From Halichondria panicea (Eukaryota; Porifera; Demospongiae; Suberitida; Halichondriidae), in NCBI RefSeq assembly GCF_963675165.1, contig NC_087379.1:4093442-4157441 (forward strand): a DNA stretch of 64,000 bases, written 5' to 3'. The translations under genes were made by a program, and so were the position numbers. Below are positions 30,190 to 54,271 of this stretch, in pieces; position 1 is the stretch's first letter, and every line of letters begins with the position of its first letter. The notes below the pieces were generated by a model. That model was not told where the DNA came from. It was given only the letters and a program-made list of their open reading frames with translations, and searched no databases.

Positions 30190-31285
30190 CTCTAAGAAGA
30201 AGCACCGAGTGAGGGTTGCCGTACCCAACCACCTGACTGGACATTGGATTTGTGTCATAGAGGATTAAATGGAGGACATTTCTCTGCCAATCGTACTTAC
30301 AAAACTCTGGCCGTACAATGGTGGTGGGAAGGAATGTATAGTGCTACCGAAAGATTTGTGAAGAGCTGTCCGGAATATGCAATCGTTTCGGGCACTGGTT
30401 GCCGCCAACCTCCTCCACTTCACCCGATCCCAGTTCATCGCCCATTTCAAATCGTAGGGGTTGACGTAATGGACCTACCGGTGACCACCAATGGAAACAA
30501 ACACGTTGTGGTGTTTCAAGATTATCGGCCCATGGTATATGCTATACCTGACCAGAAGGCCCACAGAATCGCCCGCATTTTGGTTGATGAAGTCATACCA
30601 TTCTATAGAATTCCCGAGTGCCTACTATCTGACCGTGGTACAAATCTCTTATCTCACTTAATGCGAGATCTCTGCCAAATGCTGGGAATCAAGAAATTGA
30701 ATACTACAGCGTATCACCCCGAATGCGATGGCATGGTGGAAAGATTCAATCAAACCTTGAAATCCATGTTACGCAAACATGCAGCTCGATTTGGCAAGCA
30801 ATGGGATCGTTTCCTGTCGGGTGTACTCTACGCTTACAGGAATACACCCCACGAAAGTACTGGAGAGAAGCCTTCCTACTTACTATTTGGAACCGATCTG
30901 CGTTCGCCCACAGAAGCTGCTTATCTCCCACCGTCAGAATTGGACTGGACAGTTCCGGAAGATTATCGTGTGGAAGTCACTACAATGTTATCCTCAGCTC
31001 GTTCGTTGGCGGTAGAGAATATTCAGAAGGCCCAAAAGGTGTACAAGCACTATTACGACCGGAAAGCCCGACAAAAACCATTCAAAGAAGTACTCATTCG
31101 CTTTCCCAGTGAAGAACAGGGGAAACTAAAGAAACTCTCTAGACCTTGGCACGGGAATTATTGCGAGAGAAGACCCAGACATCTCTGCAGTTAAAGTCTA
31201 CTTCCCGGAAGAGAACGCGATCCAAGTTCACCAGATGAGAGTTTGTTTCTGCCCTCCTAGATTCCCACTAGGGTATTATTGGTAT
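30190..31285 (+). pseudogene. int: Ty3/Gypsy integrase, mostly open but damaged
   Basis: A 316-codon open frame from 30244. The H2C2 zinc-binding region has the two His (LCHRGLNGGHFSANRTY) but the last Cys is replaced (SCPEYA). The catalytic core keeps D (GVDVMD), D (LLSDRGTN) and E (DGMVERFNQTL). A short deletion removes residues after FQDY. The frame shifts near 31160, and the C-terminal segment continues to about 31285 (VYFPEENAIQVHQMRV). A 15-bp tandem repeat (ATGGAGCTAATCGCC) marks the junction with the next element. Confidence 0.88.
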
Positions 31286-33778: not shown

Positions 33779-36717
33779 TTATGCAGGAAAACAACAAGTA
33801 TATACATTATATACAGTTAAACAACATACAGAACATAAGTTTTTACGTCGGAAGGATAAGGTTCCCAGTTTCTCTTAGAGTCAATGATGAATTGTCCAGG
33901 TTAAGTAAGTATTGAGGATGCATAAAAGATGTGCTTAAAAATGAATCAATAAATACACACAACACTATTACACACTCGTGAACATCAGTACAGAAACTTT
34001 GACAGTAGGACACACAATATAACAGAAATAACAGTGGTCAAATATGTGCAGCATCCCATCCGACTGGCACCATCCAATCCACCAATGCTGTCAAGGATAT
34101 TAATGTTAACGTCTCCAGGACCTCCATTAGTAGTAGGGTCAGTATTTCCGTTGTCTACATTGTCTACATTGTCTGGGCCGGTGCTGGTATCTGCGAGAAG
34201 GAAACGGAAAAGAAAATGTTGAGTACACTGAGATCACATAAAAGTCACACTAACACACCAACCGAGTAAAATAGCAGCACACTGGAACCAAGCAACTACC
34301 AAAACTCGTCAAAGCCAACAATATACTATAGATTCAATACGAAATTAACTATCCTCCGAGTGTCAAGTTGGAACCCCTTGGATATAGAAGCGCTCAAAGA
34401 GAAAAGCGATGCACTAGCTGCCATGCATGCAGCACACACTAGCAACTAGGTAAGCAAACCACACCCATACCATCAGGAACCTCCATGGTTGAGGCTTCAT
34501 TGTCTACATTAGGTGGATCTGTTGTGGGGTCTGTGTGTATACAAGTCACTGTGAATTAGCTCAGTAATTTATTTTTAGTTGCGTGGTTTTAATTTTGTAT
34601 TGAATGAGCACTGTGAACCACACAACTAATTAAAGATTGCACTCTTCATTCCACACTTTATCCAAAGCACATATAATTATATATAGCTCTCTACCGGTTA
34701 TAAGGTTGCACACACTGCCACTATACCGGTGAAAGAAACACCAAGAAACCTTGGTATCATGCAAACAAACATGGTTGCTGTACAACAACATTGTAAACGT
34801 ACATAATTACCCAAACATACAGTCAAGCATGGCTGTCTAATAGTTACTAGTTACATGTACATAAATATTACTTCGACAAACTAACATAAAATTTACACAA
34901 AATTGTAGACGTACGTAATGTGTACCCAAACAGGTGACCACTCAACACACTCAATGTACAGTCAAACGTACAGCACTCAAGCAAAAGCAGTACTCACCAT
35001 CGAGAATCTGCAGCTCCAGTATAAGACCAGCGGAGCACTGACCTCCAGATGTTTCATCAAATAAACCACCACCTACTTCTTGTGTTGCGTTTAAAACAGA
35101 ATAACCTGAGGAAAGATTACACGAATAGTTGACAAGAGAATTGATAGCTACAATCTGAATATTGTCTGTGTACAAGACACGCGTTAGCTTGAGGAAAACA
35201 TACATCTTGCAAGTTAGCACACAGTGACTATTGCAAGTTACACAATACCAACACAGCTGTGGACGGTGCAACAAGCATTGTAAAGCACCAAGGTCACATG
35301 ACAAGGACAAAGACACACTGCCTGGCTACATTCAACTCGCAAAAGTGGTGTTCCCGATAGACATGCCACAACAAGTACCTACAAAACCATACTAGTAACC
35401 ACATTCTTCCTTTGAAATTCCTGATTCAAAGGATGGAGACAGCTTTGTCTTCATAGAAAGGTCAAAGCACTATAGTGAATAGCTGCAGGTGTAGGTTCCA
35501 GTAGCCTCGTTCCCAGGCCTTATTTTTTCTTACTGTTGTCATTGTTCAATCATAATACCATAATAGAAGGCAGCAAAGATAGAAATGGGCGTACAGTTAA
35601 GAAAAAGTAAGGCCTGGTTTGGGAAATCGCGTGATCCACAAGGATTTTCATAAACGTGGGCGATTTGTATCCCACAATCGTGACGTAAGGTATTCTCCCA
35701 CGCATTCAGAGTTAATAAGACTATACTGAGACATGTACGTACACTGCCAAGGTGGTTCCACTAAGCTACTGCAAGTCAGGGAACCAGCGTGGCCAGCTAA
35801 GCTATTAGTTTAGATCTAGCATTTAGAAAGACGGAATCTAAACACACGATCTAGATAGTAGATCTAGCTAGCTTGTATAAACAGCTTGCAAACTTCCAGT
35901 TCCAAGTCCACGTCCAGCTTGCTGCAGCCAAAGTTTTATTATAGGCAGTCCAACACCTCTAGCGCTACATGCCCACGCTCATTTTCACCCTTCTACCACC
36001 CTTCTACCCTCACGCGACTTCCCGATACAGGGTCTCCTTTTTCGTAACTCTACCTCTATTTTTTTCTTTATTCCTCCAATTAATACCATATTTTATCTTA
36101 TTGAATGACTAATGCAGTATTTTATTTTATTGAACGATTGTGATAAAGAACAGAAAAAGGAAAGCCTGTGTAGAGTCTAGGGTTCCAGTATTTACTAGAA
36201 GAACATAGTAGAGAGTCTACATTGTACATCCGAGTCCATGAATTGGCACAAATCATTATTGAAAACCTGTGCATGCATGTACTTAGCAAATATGTACACA
36301 TTTGTTGGGTGCCAGAACACAAGCAATGTACCCACTCCAAAGTTATAATTTCACCATATTAGGAGTTTATGTGAATGTGTACACACAGGTGGGTTTATTC
36401 GATGATAAAATGAACAAACGACCTAATCAAATACGCCTTCTGAATTTGGTTGGGGTTTCATAACGCGCTGTACATTAGTGCTACAAACCCTTGTAGTAGA
36501 TAGCAGGAGTGCACTCCTGTAGGTAGTGATCACGGTTAGGCCCTTCAATCTCACTGCCTTAATACCCTATTCATGCAATCCTGCTAATATATACATCGTA
36601 GCATGTATCAAACATTAGCTCCTATGGGAGAATAAATAAGATGCATGTGGAAACTCTTGGTACAGGTCTTAAAGTTAATATGTACGGTACGAATGGATCA
36701 AAAACTGATAGGGTGCT
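33779..36717 (-). repeat. Segmental duplication, copy A (partner 51318-54271)
   Basis: About 2.94 kb that matches 51318-54271 in direct orientation with only scattered substitutions and small indels. The first shared bases are TTATGCAGGAAAACAACAAG and the last GATAGGGTGCT. It carries the last three exons of the cupredoxin-like gene and the repeat also seen, inverted, at 1-420. Confidence 0.93.
33985..35105 (-). pseudogene. Orphan 3' half of cupredoxin-like gene (copy A)
   Basis: Three exons on the minus strand, 35105-34998, 34530-34471 and 34190-33985, match exons 4-6 of the gene at 51.5-56.9 kb in length (108, 60 and 206 nt) and in phase. All frames are open to TGA at 33985-33987. The C-terminal cupredoxin strand region with GGQCSAGLILEL, the Asp/Asn/Thr/Pro-rich stalk and the hydrophobic tail are preserved. 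Exons 1-3 (signal peptide and most of the domain) lie beyond the duplication break and have no counterpart upstream to about 41 kb. It is either a partial-duplication pseudogene or an artefact of an uncollapsed haplotype. Confidence 0.75.
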
Positions 36718-41025: not shown

Positions 41026-42209
41026 TTTTTTTTTTTTTTTTTTTTTTCAATAATACACACACTCAGTATAGTTCAATGTACAGTACAGTGTAATAATTAT
41101 GCTAGTTAGTTCAATGTTCAGGGATCAGTGGTCTGTTATCAGTGACTCACTGATCACTAAATCGATTGGGAGGGAAGTTGCTTTTGAGGCCTTGCCTGCA
41201 GTTGAACGAGCTCCTCTGATGGCTTGGATTGAAGATCTTAGGAGTGAAAACGAGAGGGGGCATCTCAGCCAATTCATTGTGGAGGTATAGGGTTGGTCCC
41301 ATTTTGCGGCCAGGAGGGTGGCTAGACGCTTGTAAGTGGATGTTGAAGCGGGGCCAAGGCCTCCTGTTGATGACATCACGAGTGGTGTGAAGGAAGAGTG
41401 CTCTATTTCTTGGATTCGACTTTCATAAGCACGTTTCTTTACCAATTCGTGTTTTCTGTAGGGGTTGGTCTGTCTGTTTGAGGCTGCATGGGGGTTAAAG
41501 ACGCGCACATCAAAGTAGGTGCGTTTGAAGCGTCCTCCCCATAGCCCATTTGCGGCAATGTCTAGGCGAGCTCCTTCTGTGATGTTTGCTGTTGTTCCTG
41601 GGAGGTGCTCTCCTGAGATTGGCTGCAAGTGTGGTTCGATGCATACATTGTTGCAGACTTCTGATAGGAGGTTGGCCGTTATGTCTCTGATTTCGTTGTG
41701 ACGTAGTGATGGAAACCCTCCCTTGGGGCATGATAATACGTGTTCTACAGAGAACGTTTTTCCGCATTCACAGTTAGTAGGGGTGCTTGACGGTACCCAG
41801 CCATATCTCAGGCATAGGGCGTCCCGGAAAGCACATTTGTGTAGGTTAAAACCAAACTCTGACACTGGAAGGGCGGTCAGCCAGCTTGAGGCTCCTTTCT
41901 CCTGGGCTAGTGCCATTGAATGTTGAAGGGTGCTAGAGAGTGTTGGCTTGAGGAGGCTGGCAGCTTCTAGTTGTTGTGAGCGCCTTTGTTTGTGTGTTTC
42001 CCCTTTGGCCTTAAGCTGGTTTTCACATACTTCTGGTGAGTAAGTGGTGGACTGTTCTAAAATCATGGTCTTCAAGGCGCTGGTGATTTTTTGCGAAGCT
42101 GAGTATTCCGCAGAGGAGCGTTTTGATGGGTTGTGTAGTCCTATTCCCCCCAGTCTCGCGGGCATGGCTAATAGTTCTCTTTCGGTATCATTAGGGGGGG
42201 GCCTTCCTG
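41026..42209 (-). mobile_element. 5'-truncated non-LTR retrotransposon insertion with poly(A) and 10-bp target duplication
   Basis: Read on the minus strand, this insertion ends in 22 A (T run at 41026-41047). TGTGGCAGTC stands on both sides (41016-41025 and 42210-42219). Truncation at the 5' end, a poly(A) tail and a target duplication are the marks of target-primed reverse transcription. It contains the open frame described separately. Confidence 0.88.
41125..42165 (-). CDS. C-terminal part of non-LTR retrotransposon polyprotein: zinc knuckle and nuclease-like domain
   Basis: 346 open codons; the frame is open further upstream into the truncated 5' edge (TERELLAMPARLGG...), so the listed ATG is not the real start. 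The order is an RT tail (ARLGGIGLHNP), then a helical linker. A CXCX7HX3C knuckle (C-E-C...H-V-L-S-C) is followed by GGFPSLRHNEIRD. A PD-(D/E)XK-like pattern follows: EGARLDIAANG, TYFDVRVFNPHA, then KHELVKKRAYESRI. The layout RT, CCHC knuckle, nuclease is that of endonuclease-type non-LTR elements such as R2/CRE; this assignment is from pattern. No internal stop, so it is a young insertion, but it lacks the RT core. Confidence 0.8.
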   Translation of the reverse strand: MPARLGGIGLHNPSKRSSAEYSASQKITSALKTMILEQSTTYSPEVCENQLKAKGETHKQRRSQQLEAASLLKPTLSSTLQHSMALAQEKGASSWLTALPVSEFGFNLHKCAFRDALCLRYGWVPSSTPTNCECGKTFSVEHVLSCPKGGFPSLRHNEIRDITANLLSEVCNNVCIEPHLQPISGEHLPGTTANITEGARLDIAANGLWGGRFKRTYFDVRVFNPHAASNRQTNPYRKHELVKKRAYESRIQEIEHSSFTPLVMSSTGGLGPASTSTYKRLATLLAAKWDQPYTSTMNWLRCPLSFSLLRSSIQAIRGARSTAGKASKATSLPIDLVISESLITDH

Positions 42210-42214
42210 TGTGG

Positions 42215-42305
42215 CAGTCATTTAAAGATGGCGGAATTGCGTAGGTAAGAAAAGTGGAGCCTGAGAGGTCATCTGCCTCTTGGAAGCGGACGCAATTCTG
42301 AGAAA
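42215..42305 (+). repeat. Short repeat flanking the Ginger-like element (partner 46471-46560)
   Basis: It shares TTAAAGATGG, GGAATTG, TAGGTAAGA, CTGAGAGGTCATCTGCCTC and TGGAAGC in order with 46471-46560, in the same orientation. The non-LTR element inserted at its left edge. Its identity is unknown. Confidence 0.7.
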
Positions 42306-42853
42306 AACGCCCATGGTCCGGGTTCTAGTCGACTAGAGGCTGTATCTAGAATCTTCTAAACATGTCTGTACAAGGAGGAAATGCTTTCCAAGAAAGTTAC
42401 TTACTAACTTACTTACTTACTTACTTACTTAGTCAGTCAGACAAAACCCGGTGAAATATGAAAATAGTGCAATTTTTCAAATATCAATAGTAATGCATGA
42501 GAATATTCATAGACTATAATTTCACACATTTAGACAGATAAAAGGCTAACTAAGCTATCTGTCAACTCAGTTTCTTGCTGTGGCCTTTCCCTGCAGAAAT
42601 AGAGCAGTCTAAACACGAGTCAAAATTTGTGCAATAATTGAAAACACACACAACTGCACTGTCAATCCTATGTACAACCTACTGGTTGTACTAACCTACT
42701 GGTTGTACTGTAACGCCGTATATGGTCCCCGCCATAGAATGTCCCCCCGGACCATCTACGGCAGCGATATTTGGTCCCCCCTAGAAACTAGCCAATGAGA
42801 GCATGCACTAGCCTGCTGCTTGCATGCACATCATTCAAATGATATTGATCAAG

Positions 42854-44377
42854 ATGGAAGAAGAGACTGAGATTAAACTAATAGAGAAGGCTTACAATCA
42901 AGCTAACTCAAGGAACTTATCCTGAGGGTTCTACAAAGAATGAGAAGAGAGTGATCAGAAGGAAAGCAACTACACTGGATGTTGTTGATGGGGTTTTGCA
43001 CTATAGAAGAATGGATGGAGGAAGAGTAAGGATAAATTACTGAATAACAAGCTAGCTGTTGTAATTGTGCAAAGAGGTGCATGGAAAATCGAGTTCCTCT
43101 TTCTTGGTCAACTCCTGTCAAGAGATTCTTACCACCTCTTCCATGCAGGTGCGGGTTGTCATGGATAAGAAGGAAAGGGAGCAGATTTTGCTCTCATGTC
43201 ATGCAACACCAACATCTGGTCACTTGGGAACAAAAAAGACACTTGCCCGAGTCACTGAGAGGTTCATGTGGCCTGGTGTGACTAAAGAGGTTTATACTAT
43301 GGTAGGTGCATAATTTATTATCTTGTAGATACTTATACGTACACGTACACGTAGGTGACAGAGTTAAGTGGCAATCGTGTACTGGAACCTTTATCTGCCT
43401 GAACTTTGTTGATTAAAAGTATTATCTGTGTATATACATATACATGTAGATCGAGACCTGCGATGCCTGTCAGAGGACGGGTAGGAAGATCAGCACTGCA
43501 GCGCCAGAGCTCCACCCAGTTCCTGTGGTTTCACCTTGGCACCACCTCGGGATTGATTTTATTGGCCCTCTTATTTGCTCAACTCAAGGCAGTCGCTACA
43601 TACTTACGATTTGTGACTACTTCACAAAGTTTGTACTTGCTATTCCGATGGAAAACAAGCTTGCTTCTGGTGTTGCTGCTTCTCTCTACAAGGTATTGAA
43701 TTTCTTATTAAAGTTTATTAAATTATAAGTGCGTGCACGCATGCAGGTTTTCATGATGTTTGGAATACCAAGAGTCATCACTTCCGATCAGGGTGGAGAA
43801 TTCCACAATGATCTAGATGATCGACTAATGGAAATGTTGGGTATTCAACATCGGCTTTCTACTCCTTACCACCCGCAGGTATAATTATGATATAATTTTA
43901 TACATAGACATTGTTTACTAATCGCTGCAGGCAAATGGACTTGTTGAGCGGTTCAACCAAACAATCCAAACCATGCTCGTTAAGTTTGTCGATACGAAGA
44001 AGGACAGTTGGCAGGACTATCTTGAGTCGTGTGTATATGCCTACAACACATCAAAGCATGAATCCACCAAGCATTCTCCTTTTGAGGTTATGTTCTCCCG
44101 TAAGGGTGTGTTACCGGTGGACATGATTAATGTTCCAAACTGCTCTGACGAATTGCAGCTTTCTTACAGTGAAGATATATCTTTTTTTCAGTCTGAGCAT
44201 GCTGAACATCGAAGGCTACAACTGGAAGCAGTAAAAAAGAACATTCTCAAAGCTCAAGCCAAGCAAAAGGAACAATATGACAGAAAGCATCACAAGCCCG
44301 AAGTTTTCCAAGTAGGCTCTATTGTCTTGAAGAAAGATTTTCTAAAAAAAAAAGCGAGTCCATGGCAAGTTGGATCC
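42854..44377 (+). pseudogene. Integrase-type transposase of element 1, with introns; frameshifted
   Basis: A cut-and-paste transposase related to Gypsy integrases. An N-terminal piece from ATG 42854 breaks near 42920 and resumes with KRVIRRKATTLDVVDG. Exons: to 43025, 43149-43301, 43450-43692, 43747-43878 and 43931 onward, with GT-AG introns between. The H2C2 knuckle is complete (CHATPTSGHLG plus ETCDACQRTG). The catalytic triad is present: GIDFIGPL, ITSDQGGEF and NGLVERFNQTI. The frame is lost at a run of ten A (44344-44353) and again at a run of four G (44383-44386), just before the GPY/F motif; both are sites where sequencing error is as likely as mutation. Confidence 0.88.
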
Positions 44378-45219
44378 TAAATGGGGTTGGTCCTTACAAA
44401 ATAATCAGATCGATTGGCAGAGGACTGTATGGATTAGAACTTGTCGAAGACCCAACGAAGGTTGTGAGTCGAGTGAATGGTGTCCACCTCAAGCCATACC
44501 ACATTCCTGAGAATCAAGCTCTAGATTCAAGCTCCCCTAAGACCATCTCAAACAACGAGACACCACTAGACCTCACCGCACCCTTGTCAAGTCAGTCTCT
44601 TGCTAGCGCTGTGAGCAAGGAATTAAACACAACAAGTGTCCATGTTTCTGGAGTTACTTCAAGTACCCCAGTTAGAGAAGGAGGTTTTTTTGTTGACTTT
44701 AGCCTTGACGTGTCAGCAATTACAAACTCACCTCCTCCTGCTATTGCCAACTCCCCCACTTCTGCTACTGAAAACTCAACCATCACCTCGGCTGCAAACT
44801 CTACGGCAAATTACATACCCACTCCTGCAATTGGCAACTCACCCCCTCCTGCTATTGCCAACTCCCCCACTTCTGCTACTGAAAACTCAACAATCTTCCC
44901 TCATGATACTGCAACCTCACCCCCTCCTGCTATTGCCAACTCACCCACTTCTGCTACTGAAAAGTCAACAATCCTCCCTCATGATACTGCAACCTCACCC
45001 CCTCCTGCTATTGCCAACTCACTCACTTCTGCTAACTCACCTACCCCTGCCATTTATTGTTTGTGCCGACAGAGATGTGCTACAAAACGTTGTCCATGCA
45101 AGGGAAACAGAATTCCATGTGGGTTGAATTGCCACCCAGGAAGAAGTTGCGCGAACAATGTCCGGATAAACACTGGAAACACCTCTATTTATCGATCTTA
45201 CTTGCAACAATGTAGATGA
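44362..45219 (+). CDS. GPY/F module, repeat-rich linker and Cys-rich domain of element 1
   Basis: Continuation of the transposase in another frame. NGVGPYKIIRSIGRGLYGLE is the GPY/F motif found at the C-terminus of Gypsy/Ginger integrases. From about residue 125 an Ala/Pro/Ser/Thr-rich linker follows, with four near-identical units around PPPAIANSPTSATENSTI. At the end is a Cys-rich segment (YCLCRQRCATKRCPCKGNRI, then CGLNCHPGRSC) with a CXCX3CX4CXC pattern, probably zinc-binding. The frame is lost shortly before the Ulp1 part (about 45190-45235). Confidence 0.75.
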   Translation: MASWILNGVGPYKIIRSIGRGLYGLELVEDPTKVVSRVNGVHLKPYHIPENQALDSSSPKTISNNETPLDLTAPLSSQSLASAVSKELNTTSVHVSGVTSSTPVREGGFFVDFSLDVSAITNSPPPAIANSPTSATENSTITSAANSTANYIPTPAIGNSPPPAIANSPTSATENSTIFPHDTATSPPPAIANSPTSATEKSTILPHDTATSPPPAIANSLTSANSPTPAIYCLCRQRCATKRCPCKGNRIPCGLNCHPGRSCANNVRINTGNTSIYRSYLQQCR

Positions 45220-45988
45220 TGGCGCTCAACTTTTGGAGTATTGGGCGACAATTGGTGATGTAAGAATGACCAGTGGGGACAAGGCAGATCTCGGCCCTCA
45301 ATCTCACAGCTGGCTTAATGACAGACACATGACAGCTGCTCAGATTCTCCTTAAATGTGCTCATTCTGATGTCGCTGGTCTACAGGCACCAACACTACAG
45401 TGTACACGCACCTTTGAGGTCCATCAAGAGAAACAGTTCGTCCAAATCCTTAACTTATCAAAGAGTCACTGGATAACTATTTCTACTTTGAATTGCCAAC
45501 CTGGCACCGTCCATGTCTACGACAGTATGCAGCTTGGATTGAACTCTTCGTTGAAACGCATAGTTGCTGACCTTATGTTCTACAAAGGAAAGAAAATTAC
45601 TATTAAATATATGCATATTCAACAACAAAAGGGGGCCAGCGATTGTGGGCTGTTTGCTATTGCCACAGCAACAGCACTCTGTAACGGAATTGAGCCAAAC
45701 AAACTGCAATTCAATCAAAAGCTCATGAGACAACATCTAAAGAGAGCTATTGAGCAACAAAACCTTGGAGTTTTCCCAGCTATCCACGTGGCAAGAAAAC
45801 CAGCTGTAATAATGGTCGAGTATATGCGCATATACTGTACGTGTCGACATAAACGAAACAATCGTGCTATGATCGAGTGCACGAGCTGCGAGGAATGATT
45901 TCATACCGACTGTGTTAGAGCACCACCAAAAGCCATCAAGAATAACGAGCTCCCGTGGTTTTGTCAGGCATGCAAATCTACAAAATGA
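45203..45988 (+). pseudogene. Ulp1-like cysteine protease plus PHD finger of element 1
   Basis: A C48 (Ulp1/SENP-like) peptidase domain: WLNDRHM near the start, catalytic His in KSHWITIS, Asp in VYDSMQ, Gln and Cys in QQKGASDCGLFA. The family cleaves SUMO/ubiquitin-like modifiers or their own polyprotein; which applies here is unknown. A PHD finger follows (YCTCRHKRNNRAMIECTSCE...FHTDC...WFCQAC). Its conserved Trp codon is TGA (45896-45898), truncating the finger. Coding resumes in frame to TGA 45986-45988. Confidence 0.85.
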
Positions 45989-46470
45989 CGTATATCTGCA
46001 GTTTATCATGCATGAGACTTAACTTGTGTAGTACATTGTTCTATATAATATTATTGTATTCATGCTACAGTCTGTAGTATATATACAGGCTTGATCTAAT
46101 ATCACTATCTTGCATCCATTCTTCTAAACTGCTCTTGATGGGGCAGCACTGTCCGCTGTAGATGGTATATATGGGGGGGACAGTCCATGGCAATCTGATT
46201 GCCCTTGACAGTCCGGGGGGACCTTCCACGGCAATTGTAAGTTGCCGTAGACAGTCCGTGGGGACTACTTACAGCAAGGGGGGACCGTCTGCACCAGCAC
46301 TAATGGTCCCCCCGGACTGTCCATGGCAACTGACAATTGCCGTGGAAGGTCCCCCCGGACCGTCCACGGCAGAAAATGTTGCCGTAGACAATCCGGGGGG
46401 ACTCATTTACGGGGGGACCAGTTATCGTATGACAGTACTAATTAATTGGCCACAACACAATAATTGCTGA

Positions 46471-46560
46471 GTCATTAAAGATGGAGGAATTGTCTAGGTA
46501 AGAGAAATAGAGACTGAGAGGTCATCTGCCTCGTGGAAGCAATCGCAAATCTGAAGAAGC
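46471..46560 (+). repeat. Short repeat on the right side of the Ginger-like element
   Basis: Partner of 42215-42305 in direct orientation. It begins about 35 bp after the 4-bp target duplication. Confidence 0.7.
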
Positions 46561-47190: not shown

Positions 47191-47692
47191 GGAACTGTCA
47201 CTGGAAAAATGGTCCTGAAAAAACTGGTCCGGGGACCAATTTTTTCAATGAAAATTTCGGTCCGGGGACTGAAATTTTTAGAAAAAATTGGTCCCCCCCT
47301 GAAATAATCAGTCCGGCTAGACAAAAAGACGTCTCTGGACCAGGAGCGTATGTAGGGCAACCTAGGGTCCTCTCCACATCATATTATGACATACAGATAC
47401 GCACATACCCATGTACAGGGATGCAGTCACATAATATTCAGGAACTATATAGCAGCCTAGCTTGTCAGCCAGGTGTACTAGATAGAGCTGCAGCATGTGA
47501 ACCTTGAGGCCTCCACATTCTTAAGACTCAGTGTTTCAAAAGAAAGATCTATTAACGATTGACAGTTTTACAGCTTGATAAAATAATGTTACTACTACTA
47601 CGTATAATTATAATGCCGAAGTTCTGTCCGGGAATAGATACAGACGGTACGGGTGCATGGTTCATAGTTTATGGACGGTTAACAGTTACGTC

Positions 47693-48313
47693 TTAGACTG
47701 GTTTAGCACTGCACTGCATACAGTGCCAAACAGCTGATTTTTTGAATAAAGCGGCAGGAACATTCACACAGGTGTCGTAATGATACCACTCCTTGCATGT
47801 GCTGCATTCCACCCAGTTTTCCATAGTCGCCATCTCTGGCATTCTGCATAGGCAGTACACGGGGTATGTATCGATTGACACAATTGAGTCAGGAGCATGA
47901 CGATACTTCTTAATTGGAAAATGTAGTATTTGTTGCTTTTGAAAGCAAGAAAACAAGTGCTGCCTCATTTTATGTTGATTGTACTGGAAGCTTCCAGGTG
48001 AGTGGCCAAAAGCAAGAGCTGTTGCATTGGCTATAATAGCAAACAAGCCACAGTCACATCCTCCTGCCTGAATGTGTACGTTCATGAAGTTTAGAGTGAT
48101 TTCTTTGGCCTCCGTATGCAACAAAGTTGCAATCTGAGCTTTGACTCCCATGCTAACTGACCGATACATACTGTCATACACGTTAACCACTGGGTGAAGA
48201 GTGCCTATAGTAGAGACTGTGAGCCAATGGCCATGGTGATTGTTTACGACCTGTACGAACTCCCCACTTTCAACCTCGTATGAGAAGACAATACCTTTGA
48301 TAACATCCTGCAA
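47693..48313 (-). CDS. Ulp1-like protease plus PHD finger of element 2
   Basis: A 206-codon open frame. Protease motifs: His in HGHWLTVS, Asp in VYDSMY, Gln and Cys in IQAGGCDCGLFA. The PHD finger YCLCRMPEMATMENWVECST, CKEWYHYDTC, WHCMQC keeps all eight zinc ligands. Unlike in element 1, both domains are undamaged. The frame overlaps the end of the transposase frame by about 40 bp, across the deletion that removed the GPY/F and Cys-rich parts, so it is uncertain whether it is still expressed as a fusion. Confidence 0.85.
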   Translation of the reverse strand: MQDVIKGIVFSYEVESGEFVQVVNNHHGHWLTVSTIGTLHPVVNVYDSMYRSVSMGVKAQIATLLHTEAKEITLNFMNVHIQAGGCDCGLFAIIANATALAFGHSPGSFQYNQHKMRQHLFSCFQKQQILHFPIKKYRHAPDSIVSIDTYPVYCLCRMPEMATMENWVECSTCKEWYHYDTCVNVPAALFKKSAVWHCMQCSAKPV

Positions 48314-49857
48314 GCCAGGAACTGCTGGAAATGCTTGAGACTTCTACATCAATGGGAACAGTAGCTTGACGATTGAACATGAGTTCAAAAGGAGTAAACT
48401 TCGTTGAATTATGACGAGAGGTATTGTATGCGAAAACACATGTGTCCAGGTAGCTACTCCAGTCTTCACGCTTGTTGGACACAAACTTCACTAGCATGTT
48501 TTGCAACGTCTGATTGAAACGCTTGTCCAAGCCGTTAGTCTATAAAATAATATTATAGTTGAAAATACATTTTAAATATAGGATATATCAGGAGGATATG
48601 CACCTATATATCCTCTGCTATACCGTGATTACTTTGAGGCATAGCCAAGGGGTATATAACCACGGTATAGCAGAGAATATAATTATGGGTGCATATCCTC
48701 TGAGTACAAGTGTGATATATAGTTATAGTTTTAAAACTGTAGTGCATATACCTGAGGGTGGTAAGAAGTTGTAAGGCGACGCTGGATCCCAGGAGAGAAC
48801 AGAGACTAGTGTCTAAATCATTGTTGAATTCACGTCCTTGATCTGAGAGAATTACCCGAGGCAGACCCATTCTCATAAATACCTAAGAAGGAAAAGTGTG
48901 TGATCATTATTTATTGGCCGTGCGTGCATTGTGTATGTGTGTGGTATTCATACATAATTTATACCTTGAACAATGATGTTGCTACTGATGATGCACTCTT
49001 GCCAGGTGTAGGAATAGCTTCTACCCACTTGGTAAAGTAATCGCTCATGGTTAAGATGTAGCGGGAACCATTGTCAGTTGGAGAGAGAGGACCAACAAAA
49101 TCAATTCCTAGCATGTACCAAGGAAACTGCACACGGATGGGGTGAAGTTCGGGCCTGCCAGTAGTTAGCTTTTGATTAACTCGCTGGCAAACGTCACAAG
49201 TAGACACCTATAAAGTAGACACATAAATATTGAGGGAAGGTGTTCCTGTTTGAGACTAACTATAACTTTGTATACACGTAGGTGTAACAATAATACAGAA
49301 CCAAGTTGACATCCCAATAATTATAGATATTGACTATTATGTGCACTAAAATACAAGGACAGATGAGCAAATCTACTAACCATTTCTTTCACGTCCTTTA
49401 CCATGCCATGCCACATGTAACGCTCCTTAATTCGGGCAAGTGTGCGAGTCACCCCCATATGTCCAGATGTTTCATCAACATGGCAAGCGAACAGTATTTT
49501 CTTTCTCTCTCTTCGGTTGATAATGTATCGGATCAACACATCATCCTAAAATATCGAGAAGGCAATATATAGGAGCTATAATACCAGAAGAATCGAACAT
49601 AGGTGACGCGTTATATATACCTAGAGATGGCCACTCCTGTAATGATTGTAAATTACATTACAGATACACTAACTCACTCTGTCCTTTCTCTTGTGTTTGT
49701 ACATGAAGTCACCATTGTTCACTACAAACTGCTTGGCCTTTCTTCTGATGACCCTTTTTCTTCCCTCTTTACAGTCATTAGGGTATTTCTTGGTGGTGAC
49801 ATAGTGGAATACCTCTTCTATTAGCTCTTCCTCCCCTGTGTGTAGCTCAAGCTCCAT
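48280..49857 (-). pseudogene. Integrase-type transposase of element 2, catalytic Glu lost
   Basis: Exons on the minus strand: 49857-49678, 49545-49381, 49207-48965, 48882-48752, and 48539 to about 48280. H2C2 knuckle: CHVDETSGHMG and STCDVCQR. First catalytic Asp in GIDFVGPL, second in ILSDQGREF. In the third motif the sequence reads NGLDKRFNQTL where the family has NGLVERFNQ, so the catalytic Glu is Lys. A one-base shift near 48800-48830 also breaks the frame before the HPQ junction. Introns fall at the same three positions as in element 1. Transposase is therefore dead. Confidence 0.85.
48590..48702. repeat. Hairpin inside an intron of element 2
   Basis: AGGAGGATATGCACC...TCTGCTATACCGTG pairs with CACGGTATAGCAGA...GGTGCATATCCTCT around a loop of about 30 bp. 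It looks like a small element nested in the transposase intron between the second Asp and third (Glu) motifs. Confidence 0.7.
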
Positions 49858-50351
49858 AAGAATAACTGGAACAAACTTTTCAGCTGCATCAAAAGCTGTG
49901 CAAGTTGCGCAGCAACCAGGACTACTTTTTTCGAGGGCGGACCAACATTATCAGCTAAAATTGGTCCGGGGGACCGAAAATTTCAGTCCGGGGACTGAAA
50001 TTATCGGCGGACCAAAATTTTCATGACAGAACAAACGTTTATCATCACTTACACTTCTACATTTACACAGAGACTAGTCTACTAGACATGATTGCATTGA
50101 CATTTGACATACCTTAAGAAGAGTTGGCTGGAGTTTGCCATCCCAGGCAAATTGAGCTTCTGGTCAACCGTCATAAACATTCTTGACTTGCTGATGGCCG
50201 GCACTGCACTGTACTGTACTGTACTGTACACTGTCAATACTGTGCACCATCTAGAAAACAGTGGGCGTTGCCGACAAAAGGGGCGTGACCCCGGAAGTGG
50301 GCGTGGTTTAAATTTTGCTGCGCTTCGCGCGCAATGAGCACCCTCCATTGA

Positions 50352-51317: not shown

Positions 51318-54271
51318 TTATGCAGGAAAACAACAAGTATAATACATTATAATTATATACACAGTTAAACAACATACAGAACATAAGTCTTTACGTCGGA
51401 AGGATAAGGTTCCCAGTTTCTTCTTAGAGTCAATGATGAATTGTCCAGGTTAAGTAAGTATTGAGGATGCATAAAAGATGTGCTTAAAAATGAATCAATA
51501 AATACACACAACACTATTACACACTCGTGAACATCAGTACAGAAACTTTGACAGTAGGACACACAATATAACAGAAATAACAGTGGTCAGATATGTGCAG
51601 CATCCCATCCGACTGGCACCATTCAATCCACCAACTCTGCCAGGGATATTGATGTTAATGTCTCCAGGACCTCCATTAGTAGTAGGGTCAGTATTTCCGT
51701 TGTCTACATTGTCTACATTGTCTGGGCCGGTGCTGGGGTCTGCGAGAAGGAAACGGAAAAGGAAATGTTGAGTACACTGAGATCACATAAAAGTCACACT
51801 ACACACACCAACCGAGTAAAATACCAGCACACTGGAACCAGGCAACTACCAAAACTCGTCAAAGCCAACAATATACCAGTGAACTTATAGATTCAATATG
51901 AAATTAACTATCCTCTGAGTGTCAAGTTAGAACCCCTTGGATATAGAAGCGCTCAAAGAGAAAAGCGATGCACTAGCTGCCATGCATGCAGCACACACTA
52001 GCAACTAGGTAAGCAAACCACACCCATACCATCAGGAACCTCCATGGTTGAGGCTTCATTGTCTACATTAGGTGGATCTGTTGTGGGGTCTGTGTGTATA
52101 CAAGTCACTGTGAATTAGCTCAGTAATTTATTTTTAGTTGCGTGGTTTTAATTTTGTATTGAATGAGCACTGTGAACCACACAACTAATTAAAGATTGCA
52201 CTCTTCATTCCACACTTTATCCACCCCATTAAAGCACATATAATTATATATAGCTCTCTACCGGTTATAAGGTTGCACATACTGCCACTATACCGGTGAA
52301 AGAAACACCAAGAAACCTTGGTATCATGCAAACAAACATGGTTGCTGTACAACAACATTGTAAACGTACATAATTACCCAAACATACAGTCAAGCATGGC
52401 TGTCTAATAGTTACTAGTTACATGTACATAAATATTACTTCGACAAACTAACATAAAATTTACACAAAATTGTAGATGTACGTAATGTGTACCCAAACAG
52501 GTGACCACTCAACACACTCAATGTACAGTCAAACGTACAGCACTCAAGCAAAAGCAGTACTCACCATCGAGAATCTGCAGCTCCAGTATAAGACCAGCGG
52601 AGCACTGACCTCCAGATGTTTCATCAAATAAACCACCACCTACTACTTGTGTTGCGTTTAAAACAGAATAACCTGAGGAAAGATTACACGAATAGTTGAC
52701 AAGAGAATTGATAGCTACAATCTGAATATTGTCTGTGTACAAGACACGCGTTAGCTTGAGGAAAACATACATCTTGCAAGTTAGCACACAGTGACTATTG
52801 CAAGTTACACAATACCAACACAGCTGTGGACGGTGCAACAAGCATTGTAAAGCACCAAGGTCACATGACAAGGACAAAGACACACTGCCTGGCTACATTC
52901 AACTCGCAAAAGTGGTGTTCCCGATAGACATGCCACAACAAGTACCTACAAAACCATACTAGTAACCACATTCTTCCTTTGAAATTCCTGATTCAAAGGA
53001 TGGAGACAGCTTTGTCTTCATAGAAAGGTCAAAGCACTATAGTGAATAGCTGCAGGTGTAGGTTCCAGTAGCCTCGTTCCCAGGCCTTATTTTTTCTTAC
53101 TGTTGTCATTGTTCAATCATAATACCATAATAGAAGGCAGCAAAGATAGAAATGGGCGTACAGTTAAGAAAAAGTAAGGCCTGGTTTGGGAAATCGCGTG
53201 ATCCACAAGGATTTTCATAAACGTGGGCGATTTGTATCCCACAATCGTGACGTAAGGTATTCTCCCACGCATTCAGAGTTAATAAGACTATACTGAGACA
53301 TGTACGTACACTGCCAAGGTGGTTCCACTAAGCTACTGCAAGTCAGGGAACCAGCGTGGCCAGCTAAGCTATTAGTTTAGATCTAGCATTTAGAAAGACG
53401 GAATCTAAACACACGATCTAGATAGTAGATCTAGCTAGCTTGTATAAACAGCTTGCAAACTTCCAGTTCCAAGTCCACGTCCAGCTTGCTGCAGCCAAAG
53501 TTTTATTATAGGCAGTCCAACACCTCTAGCGCTACATGCCCACGCTCATTTTCACCCTTCTACCACCCTTCTACCCTCACGCGACTTCCCGATACAGGGT
53601 CTCCTTTTTCGTAACTCTACCTCTATTTTTTCTTTATTCCTCCAATTAATACCATATTTTATCTTATTGAATGACTAATGCAGTATTTGAACGATTGTGA
53701 TAAAGAACAGAAAAAGGAGAGCCTGTGTAGAGTCTAGGGTTCCAGTATTTACTAGAAGAACATAGTAGAGAGTCTACATCTGAGTCCATGAATTGGCACA
53801 AATCATTGTTGAAAACCTGTGCATGCATGGACTTAGCAAATATGTACACATTTGTTGGGTGCCAGAACACAAGCAATGTACCCACTCTAAAGTTATAATT
53901 TCACCATATTAGGAGTTTATGTGAATGTGTACACACAGGTGGGTTTATAGCAACCTTGTTCGATGATAAAATGAACAAACGACCTAATCAAATACGCCTT
54001 CTGAATTTGTTTGGGGTTTCATAACGGGCTGTACATTAGTGCTACAAACCCTTGTAGTAGATAGCAGGAGTGCACTCCTGTAGATAGTGATTACGGTTAG
54101 GCCCTTCAATCTCACTGCCTTAATACCCTATTCATGCAATCCTGCTAATATATACATTGTAACATGTATCAAACATTAGCTCCTATGGGAGAATAAATAA
54201 GATGCATGTGGAAACTCTGGTCTTAAAGTTAATATGTACGGTACGAATGGATCAAAAACTGATAGGGTGCT
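51318..54271 (-). repeat. Segmental duplication, copy B (partner 33779-36717)
   Basis: Direct copy of 33779-36717, about 2.95 kb. It contains exons 4-6 of the cupredoxin-like gene; its right edge lies about 300 bp from exon 3. Differences from copy A are single bases and indels of a few bases. Confidence 0.93.

What the first reader, a model, noticed from the sequence alone, without database searches (positions are those of the whole stretch)
42709..46434. Complete Ginger1-like transposon with a protease and chromatin-reader cargo
Sequence shows TIR-like ends of about 56 bp, an exact GTAC duplication, an integrase-type transposase with H2C2, DDE and GPY/F parts, a Cys-rich segment, an Ulp1-type protease with His/Asp/Gln/Cys motifs, and a PHD finger, all inside the ends. 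Integrase-like DNA transposons carrying Ulp1 and PHD are known as a small group; their biology is hardly studied. Possible roles of the protease (SUMO-related or self-processing) and of the PHD finger (targeting to histone marks) are inference.
Basis: partly seen in the sequence, partly recalled or inferred. Interest (0 to 1): 0.75.

Follow-up and report, generated by a model that had tools for sequence, protein, structure and literature searches.

The report
Ginger1-like DNA transposon, broken copy
This is a real cut-and-paste DNA transposon of the Ginger1 type whose transposase carries its own protease and histone-reader domains; the copy in the window is broken, but its relatives in the same genome point to a lineage that has switched to a different kind of insertion site.

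Summary
The element spans 42709-46434 (3726 bp): TGTAACG...ATGACA ends, imperfect 56-bp TIRs, exact GTAC duplication. Sibling copies fix both ends, and seven uninterrupted copies of the repeat it landed in show the unduplicated site. Inside lie H2C2, DDE, GPY/F, a repeat-rich linker, a Cys-rich stretch, an Ulp1-type protease and a PHD finger.

Corrections. (1) It is structurally complete, not coding-complete: frame breaks and a stop in the PHD finger, most of them absent from a sibling copy. (2) Protease and PHD are not cargo: in a sister family (S) one 757-aa frame runs from the catalytic Glu to the PHD. (3) The published Ginger1 target, CCGG/CCGT, is not met. In two other Ginger1-like families of this genome 36 of 40 flanks read are CCGG (3 ACGG, 1 CTGG). 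Family S gives G-N-N-C at 14 of 16 insertions, CCGG at none; the focal family (GTAC, GAGC, TACC, TCTC, GGCT) fits G-N-N-C in 2 of 5, CCGG in none.

So this is a Ginger1-like lineage with an altered target preference. The Ulp1-PHD architecture itself is in print (Ginger1-9_HM, Bao 2010). The PHD resembles solved H3K4me3 readers; chromatin targeting and SUMO removal are inferences. Interest moderate.

The parts
42705..42708 (+). target site duplication GTAC, left
   Evidence: single GTAC in 7 of 7 fetched uninterrupted copies of the repeat it landed in
42709..42764 (+). 5' terminal inverted repeat (TGTAACG...), about 56 bp, 72% to the other end
   Evidence: same start in the C12 and C15 copies
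42854..43025 (+). exon 1: N-terminal region with YPYY-like motif; reading frame broken in this copy near 42896
   Evidence: exon limits read by eye
43149..43301 (+). exon 2: H2C2 zinc-binding domain (first part)
   Evidence: Pfam PF17921 E 1.2e-13; exon limits by eye
43450..43692 (+). exon 3: end of H2C2 and first catalytic Asp (GIDFIGPL)
43747..43878 (+). exon 4: second catalytic Asp (SDQGGEF)
   Evidence: PF00665 E 6.9e-5, below cut-off
43931..44535 (+). start of exon 5: catalytic Glu (NGLVERF) and GPY/F region; frame breaks near 44344 and 44383
44711..45051 (+). low-complexity Ser/Pro/Thr-rich linker built of repeats
   Evidence: repeat family D1
45055..45159 (+). Cys-rich segment (C-x-C-x3-C-x4-C-x-C-x6-C-x3-C-x5-C); in this genome found at good scores only here and in the C12 copy
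   Evidence: no Pfam match
45224..45826 (+). Ulp1-type (C48) cysteine protease domain, His/Asp/Gln/Cys present
   Evidence: PF02902
45827..45988 (+). PHD finger, interrupted by TGA at 45896-45898
   Evidence: PHD fingers of sibling families match solved PHD structures
46160..46434 (+). 3' subterminal array of G-rich modules in both orientations, ending in the 3' TIR (...TATGACA)
46435..46438 (+). target site duplication GTAC, right
47196..50028 (-). second, related Ginger1-like element (family S), internally deleted, TSD GTTC in its own orientation

Best explanation
The element is a cut-and-paste DNA transposon of the Ginger1 type. Its spliced transposase gene encodes a Gypsy-like integrase (H2C2, DDE, GPY/F) followed by an Ulp1-type protease and a PHD finger. 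Shown: ends, TIRs, 4-bp target duplication, sibling copies, domain order, and, in the sister family S, a target preference of G-N-N-C that differs from the CCGG of other Ginger1-like families in the same genome; the few focal-family sites are not CCGG either. Inferred: the transposase binds the G-rich end modules, joins the ends to staggered cuts 4 bp apart, reads H3K4-methylated chromatin through the PHD finger, and uses the Ulp1 domain to strip SUMO or ubiquitin-like modifiers from itself or from host proteins at the insertion site. The window copy cannot make a full transposase as read, but it is fairly young (30 substitutions and 12 indels over about 3 kb to its nearest copy), so the family moved not long ago.
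For: Ends and TSD. Empty site: in 7 of 7 fetched uninterrupted copies (7 of 40 scored, chosen because their match ran furthest) the left-hand repeat reads GTTGTACTAAT, and the window has GTTGTAC[element]GTACTAAT. Family B element L010 has its unoccupied counterpart in this window: the two flank alignments overlap by exactly the CCGG at 42318-42321. Copies: C12 (97% and 94% pieces), C4 3' part, C15 diverged copy, C9 3' end. Domains. Fusion: L019 757-aa frame. Target preference, 5' flanks: A 20/20 CCGG (18 distinct flanks); B 16 CCGG, 3 ACGG, 1 CTGG of 20; S 14/16 GNNC, 0/16 CCGG. Integrase tree: focal+S one side at 94/95; nine rows of Ginger1-like elements against three Gypsy at 100/100. PHD: profile matches led by TAF3, SPP1 and PHF8, family A alone by YNG2, SPP1, ING1.
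Against: Published Ginger1 target CCGG/CCGT is not met. Focal-family sites are few and fit GNNC in only 2 of 5 (GTAC, GAGC; not TACC, TCTC, GGCT); the C15 and C9 members are diverged (68-83%). Two of 8 S pairs disagree between the two sides (TAGC/GATC, GGAC/GTAC); taking the 5' side of the first would give 13 of 16. The GNNC pattern was named after seeing the first sites. Apart from the window copy no focal-family copy with both ends was found. Both the window and the C12 copy have a frame break between the Cys-rich segment and Ulp1, so the fusion is shown in the sister family only. The focal+S branch is not starred, and several rows of that tree are partial. Pfam's C48 model gave no match for the Ulp1 pieces of families A and C or of the window S element; their Ulp1 nature rests on similarity to the focal domain. 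No Hydra Ginger1 sequence could be compared.
Confidence: 0.87

Rival explanations
1. It is a decayed Gypsy-type LTR retrotransposon that lost its gag-RT part, and the TIRs are chance.
For: The integrase core is Gypsy-like and Gypsy elements exist in this genome and an integrase frame of that kind in the window (30244-31194). Direct matches between the flanks exist: 86 bp at 85% (42216-42301 / 46470-46554) and a 2.95-kb duplication (33779-36717 / 51318-54271).
Against: TIRs far above chance; shared termini in other copies; no frame of 100 aa or more on the minus strand of the element, and those on the plus strand are integrase, linker (one of them its alternative frame) and Ulp1 (no RT profile was run over the whole element); the integrase splits from three Gypsy integrases at 100/100. 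The 86-bp match does not touch the element ends, and its right-hand side lies in a dispersed repeat. The 2.95-kb duplication lacks TG..CA ends, lies 5-9 kb away outside other repeats, and a 201-bp piece of it had 6 matches, two of them at about 100%, both in this window.
Confidence: 0.03
2. It is an ordinary CCGG-targeting Ginger1, and GTAC is one off-target insertion; the S family's GNNC pattern is a separate peculiarity unrelated to the focal family.
For: Only 2 of 5 focal-family flanks fit GNNC; focal and S differ in the residue after DQG in the second catalytic motif, and the branch joining them has 94/95 support only.
Against: None of 5 focal-family flanks is CCGG, ACGG or CCGT, against 39 of 40 flanks in A and B; 4 of 5 end in C and 3 of 5 begin with G.
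Confidence: 0.2
3. The Ulp1 and PHD parts are passenger genes picked up by an integrase-only transposon.
For: In the window the Ulp1 part lies in a different frame from the Cys-rich part before it; Ulp1-PHD modules also occur behind Mutator-like and P-like transposases here.
Against: In sister family S one open frame of 757 aa joins catalytic Glu, GPY/F, linker, Ulp1 and PHD; the same order is read in families A, B and C, and Bao 2010 describes Ulp1 and PHD as C-terminal domains of the transposase.
Confidence: 0.05

Closest known systems
Ginger1-9_HM of Hydra (Bao, Kapitonov and Jurka 2010, PMC2836005)
   Same: Integrase-type transposase with Ulp1 and PHD at the C-terminus; similar length (3,758 against 3,726 bp); introns; TIRs; 4-bp duplication; TGTNR ends for the group (table and text read).
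   Different: Published Ginger1 target CCGG or CCGT/ACGG, here GTAC with a GNNC preference in the sister family; 2 introns listed there, 4 read here; TIR 120 bp there, about 56 here; a Cys-rich segment before Ulp1 is not mentioned in the parts read. No sequence comparison was possible.
Families A, B and C of the same genome (Ginger1-like, Ulp1-PHD)
   Same: Same domain order and G-rich end modules.
   Different: CCGG or ACGG targets; Ulp1 parts 26-31% identical to the focal one; no Cys-rich segment seen.
Ginger2/Tdd
   Same: Gypsy-like integrase DNA transposon with TGTNR ends and TIRs.
   Different: Ginger2 lacks GPY/F and YPYY and prefers AT-rich RTATAY targets; here GPY is present and the site is GTAC.
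Mutator-like and P-like transposons with Ulp1-PHD
   Same: Ulp1-PHD-like tail at the C-terminus of a transposase: L077 (Mutator model above cut-off; its PHD and C48 matches below cut-off) and L078 (P-element HTH and C48 above cut-off, PHD below) in this genome. Bao 2010 notes Ulp1 in Mutator.
   Different: Different transposase superfamily.

Membership tests
Ginger1 | TIRs of about 40-270 bp | tested here: met
   about 56 bp, 42 of 58 columns identical
Ginger1 | 4-bp target site duplication | tested here: met
   GTAC on both sides, with the unduplicated site in 7 of 7 fetched uninterrupted copies of the host repeat
Ginger1 | target sequence CCGG or CCGT/ACGG | tested here: not met
   GTAC here; focal family 0 of 5, sister family S 0 of 16; families A and B 39 of 40 flanks CCGG or ACGG
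Ginger1 | termini TGTNR | tested here: met
   TGTAA and, at the other end, TGTCA
Ginger1 | H2C2 and DDE integrase domains | tested here: met
   PF17921 E 1.2e-13; rve matches per exon below cut-off; catalytic D, D, E in the alignment
Ginger1 | GPY/F motif | tested here: met
   GPYKI in a window frame and in the C12 copy
Ginger1 | YPYY motif upstream of the zinc finger | tested here: inconclusive
   C12 copy reads TYPEG...LDVVDGVLHY: Y, P and last Y present, third position L by eye; family S has F there
Ginger1 | C-terminal Ulp1 or OTU protease | tested here: met
   PF02902 above cut-off, catalytic residues present
Ginger1 | one fused transposase protein | tested here: inconclusive
   fused in family S (L019); frame break between Cys-rich part and Ulp1 in both focal copies that cover it
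Ginger1 | integrase groups with published Ginger1 in a tree | not testable with these tools
   no Hydra or Branchiostoma sequences held; within this genome Ginger1-like elements split from three Gypsy at 100/100
Gypsy LTR retrotransposon | LTRs and reverse transcriptase | tested here: not met
   no LTR pair at the element ends, no unexplained long frame inside; no RT profile search was run over the whole element
Ginger2/Tdd | RTATAY target, no GPY/F | tested here: not met
H3K4me3-reading PHD finger | sequence match to solved H3K4me3 readers with the Trp of the cage | tested here: inconclusive
   171 PDB sequences matched, 60 shown; the top three names are TAF3, SPP1 and PHF8, but PHD fingers of other kinds (MLL3, SHORT LIFE, BAZ2B, KAT6A) are in the list too (for family A). 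Which of them bind H3K4me3 is recalled; binding not testable here

The most novel reading that the evidence does not exclude
Within one genome the Ginger1-like transposases have split into a CCGG-targeting branch and a branch (focal and S) that targets G-N-N-C, so the target choice of a retroviral-type integrase changed while the rest of the machine, including the Ulp1-PHD tail, stayed the same. Comparing the two branches could show which integrase residues choose the target. In addition the Ulp1-PHD tail may have been exchanged between Ginger1, Mutator and P transposons (suggested by the Ulp1 tree, not significant: AU p 0.09).
Probability: 0.65. Interest if true: 0.55.

Novelty: new variant of a known kind. 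Interest (0 to 1): 0.42.

Why it matters
Ginger1 transposons carry integrases closely related to those of Gypsy elements. A natural pair of sister branches with the same architecture but different target preferences, side by side in one genome, is a ready-made experiment for finding what in such an integrase picks the insertion site. The PHD finger, of a type that often reads an active-chromatin mark, and the Ulp1 protease suggest a transposase that both steers to open chromatin and edits SUMO or ubiquitin marks there; this is testable with a single protein.

Tried and rejected
LTR retrotransposon reading: rejected (no LTR pair, no sign of RT). The 2.95-kb direct duplication around the region was considered as LTRs and rejected. 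Cargo reading: rejected by the 757-aa frame in L019. Module exchange between transposon superfamilies: the Ulp1 tree puts focal and S with Mutator-like, P-like and unclassified modules and A-D apart (100/99), but one Ginger1 clade is not rejected (AU p 0.092, log-likelihood difference 4.06), nor is S with A-D (p 0.36), and the A-D rows lack the first part of Ulp1; so I do not claim it. Target residue: the position after DQG in the second catalytic motif is G in the focal and C12 copies and R in S, A, B, C, D and E; since S shares R with the CCGG families it cannot by itself explain the target change. Cys-rich segment as a CXC (Tesmin/MSL2-type) DNA-binding domain: the spacing reminds me of it (recalled), but Pfam gave nothing at E up to 10 and the PDB two weak matches at E 4.8. 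Structure prediction of the window Ulp1 part with one relative: mean pLDDT 39.7, not used, no fold search made. The organism was not identified; that it looks like a sponge is an untested impression.
Full report
What is there. The element runs from 42709 to 46434 (3726 bp) and is flanked by GTAC on both sides. Its ends are inverted repeats of about 56 bp, 42 of 58 aligned columns identical; over 72 bases the alignment score is 50, while 2000 mononucleotide shuffles reached at most 27 and 2000 random pieces of the window at most 19. The 3' subterminal region is an array of G-rich modules in both orientations.

Ends confirmed by other copies. The genome (131 Mb, 39 contigs) holds at least four other places of this family: a C12 copy that matches the window from the left end to about 45769 in pieces of 97% and 94% identity and has lost its 3' end; a C4 fragment with the 3' part (95% and 93%); a diverged C15 copy (68%, 74% and 83% in three pieces); and a C9 3' end (83% over 84 bases). 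Left junctions of window, C12 and C15 copies all begin TGTAACG; all three have a C just before it and differ further out. Right junctions of window, C4 and C9 copies all end ATGACA before differing flanks. These searches give lower bounds.

Empty site. The left flank is the end of a dispersed repeat (486 candidate places, 40 scored). I fetched seven of the 40, chosen because their match ran furthest towards the insertion point. All seven read ...GTTGTACTAAT and then diverge, while the window reads ...GTTGTAC, element, GTACTAAT. Only about four bases on the right belong to the repeat, so this is a short but consistent match. A second empty site supports the mechanism for the wider group: L010, a family B element, is flanked by CCGG, and the window at 42210-42602 is the same sequence (99% over 112 and 95% over 293 bases) without the insertion, the two alignments overlapping by exactly the CCGG at 42318-42321.

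Coding content. Five exons can be read with GT-AG introns at 43026-43148, 43302-43449, 43693-43746 and 43879-43930 (by eye). Pfam finds the H2C2 zinc finger (E 1.2e-13) and the C48 protease above their cut-offs; the integrase core in pieces and an SH3-like Tf2-1 match over the GPY region are below theirs. In an alignment of six Ulp1 domains H82, D100, Q135 and C141 are invariant. Ahead of the protease lie a repetitive Ser/Pro-rich linker and a Cys-rich stretch; a 64-residue query with it found the window and C12 copies at 100% and one further place at E 0.08.

The copy is broken. The window copy has single-base frame breaks near 42896, 44344 and 44383 and an in-frame TGA inside the PHD finger; at these places the C12 copy (frame breaks) or the C4 copy (stop) reads on. 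The C12 copy has lost its 3' end and has breaks of its own. Between the Cys-rich part and Ulp1 both copies are out of frame, so from this family I cannot say that the two are fused. Window and C12 copy differ by 30 substitutions and 12 indels over about 3 kb, window and C4 copy by 15 substitutions over about 0.7 kb plus several deletions, so the family was active not long ago.

Not cargo. The protease and PHD are domains of the transposase. In family S, whose integrase is the nearest relative in the tree (most matches 58-60% identity over an 81-aa exon), L019 has one frame of 757 aa from the catalytic Glu through GPY, linker, Ulp1 and PHD (read; its Ulp1 part matches the focal one at E 2.7e-40; not scanned by Pfam). 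Families A, B and C have the same order; their PHD fingers match Pfam at E 3.9e-9, 9e-8 and 3.8e-8. Against this: Pfam's C48 model matched family B (E 3.5e-6) but not the Ulp1 pieces of A and C nor that of the window's S element, whose PHD is below cut-off (E 5e-4). Bao and colleagues describe Ulp1, OTU and PHD as C-terminal domains of Ginger1 transposases and list Ginger1-9_HM with Ulp1 and PHD (parts 1 and 2 of 5 of the text read, passages of the rest).

Target preference. I read the 4 bases before the 5' end for the first 20 of 40 listed family A places and the first 20 of 40 scored family B places (242 candidates). A: 20 of 20 CCGG, 18 of them with distinct flanks. B: 16 CCGG, 3 ACGG, 1 CTGG. 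Family C, two copies: ACGG and CCGG. Family S, 16 insertions with a readable junction: GATC, GGCT, GCAC, GAAC, GTTC, GTAC, GATC, GAAC, GTAC, GTAC, GACC, AATA, GTGC, GGCC, GAAC, GCTC, taking the 3' side where both exist. That is 14 of 16 G-N-N-C and 0 of 16 CCGG; the binomial p from base composition is about 1e-17, but the pattern was named after the first sites were seen, and counting the 5' side of one disagreeing pair would give 13 of 16. Of 8 S insertions with both sides, 6 agree exactly, one differs at one base (GGAC/GTAC) and one disagrees (TAGC/GATC). Three listed S matches gave no junction and were left out: C12:3013462 (fetched as L035; the other side of C12:3009772), C12:2445272 and C1:7073235 (not fetched). 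The focal family gives GTAC (both sides), GAGC and TCTC (5' sides), TACC and GGCT (3' sides): 2 of 5 G-N-N-C, 0 of 5 CCGG. Published Ginger1 targets are CCGG 75% and CCGT/ACGG 24%. I therefore call this a Ginger1-like variant and do not file it as a plain Ginger1 member. The integrase tree puts focal and S together at 94/95, below the starred level, with some rows partial.

PHD and Ulp1. A profile of six C-terminal parts matches 171 PDB sequences (60 shown), led by the PHD fingers of TAF3, SPP1 and PHF8; DIDO1, PHF13, PHF23, BPTF and ING are in the list, but so are fingers of other kinds such as MLL3, SHORT LIFE, BAZ2B and KAT6A. The family A finger alone matches YNG2, SPP1 and ING1 best. Which of these read H3K4me3 is recalled. 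The window's TGA falls on the conserved Trp of this finger. The Ulp1-PHD pair also ends a Mutator-like (L077) and a P-like (L078) transposase here, with some of the domain matches below cut-off. The Ulp1 tree places focal and S nearer to those than to families A-D (100/99 for A-D), but a common Ginger1 clade is not rejected (AU p 0.092). Bao 2010 already notes Ulp1 in Mutator and suggests a role of ubiquitin and SUMO pathways in transposition.

Literature. Searches: Ginger1/transposon/integrase/Ulp1 (5,846 papers with two or more terms, 20 listed), Ginger1 with sponge (3 papers, none relevant by listing), Ulp1/PHD finger/transposase/Ginger (8), Ginger1 with target site duplication (7), Ulp1/PHD/P element/Mutator/transposon (10). 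In these listings and in the passages seen I met no report of a non-CCGG Ginger1 target. I read only passages of PMC10045372, PMC12440569 and PMC9004415, and a term search in PMC12863088 gave no hit. Repbase entries could not be consulted, so the target variant may be recorded there.

Mechanism. Most likely the transposase brings both ends together, cuts them, and joins them to target strands 4 bp apart, like other retroviral-type integrases; gap repair makes the duplication. The PHD finger probably ties the complex to H3K4-methylated chromatin, and the Ulp1 domain probably removes SUMO-like modifiers; both are inference.

Noticed in passing
window 47196-50028 (-): Second Ginger1-like element (family S, Ulp1-PHD), internally deleted, TSD GTTC, about 0.76 kb from the focal element.
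   Followed up: yes
window 42210-42602: Unoccupied counterpart of the family B insertion in L010: single CCGG at 42318-42321.
   Followed up: yes
window 33779-36717 and 51318-54271: 2.95-kb direct duplication, 97% identical, with weaker matches near 19.0-19.9 kb; looks like a local gene or segment duplication.
   Followed up: partly
L077 and L078 (G000 C2:4762000-4766800, C6:609400-613600): Mutator-like and P-like transposase frames of more than 1100 aa that end in the same Ulp1-PHD pair.
   Followed up: partly
L076 and four further places (C3:4075147, C8:3740872, C2:3327804, C2:8595576): Five places with a 422-425 aa frame carrying an Ulp1-like part 40-41% identical to the focal one; L076 also has a PHD; transposase type not recognised by Pfam.
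   Followed up: no
window 30244-31194: Gypsy-like integrase frame (H2C2 above cut-off, rve below).
   Followed up: no
window 41125-42165 (-): 346-aa open frame without a Pfam match.
   Followed up: no
genome-wide, family B ends: 242 candidate places for the family B 5' end against far fewer integrase matches, suggesting many short non-autonomous copies.
   Followed up: no
L054/L055, L040/L045 and L039/L059: Pairs of insertions with the same 5' flank; L054/L055 (family A) sit in what looks like a family B end, and L039 (A) and L059 (B) share the same flank, so insertions were copied along with their site or fell into the same repeat.
   Followed up: no
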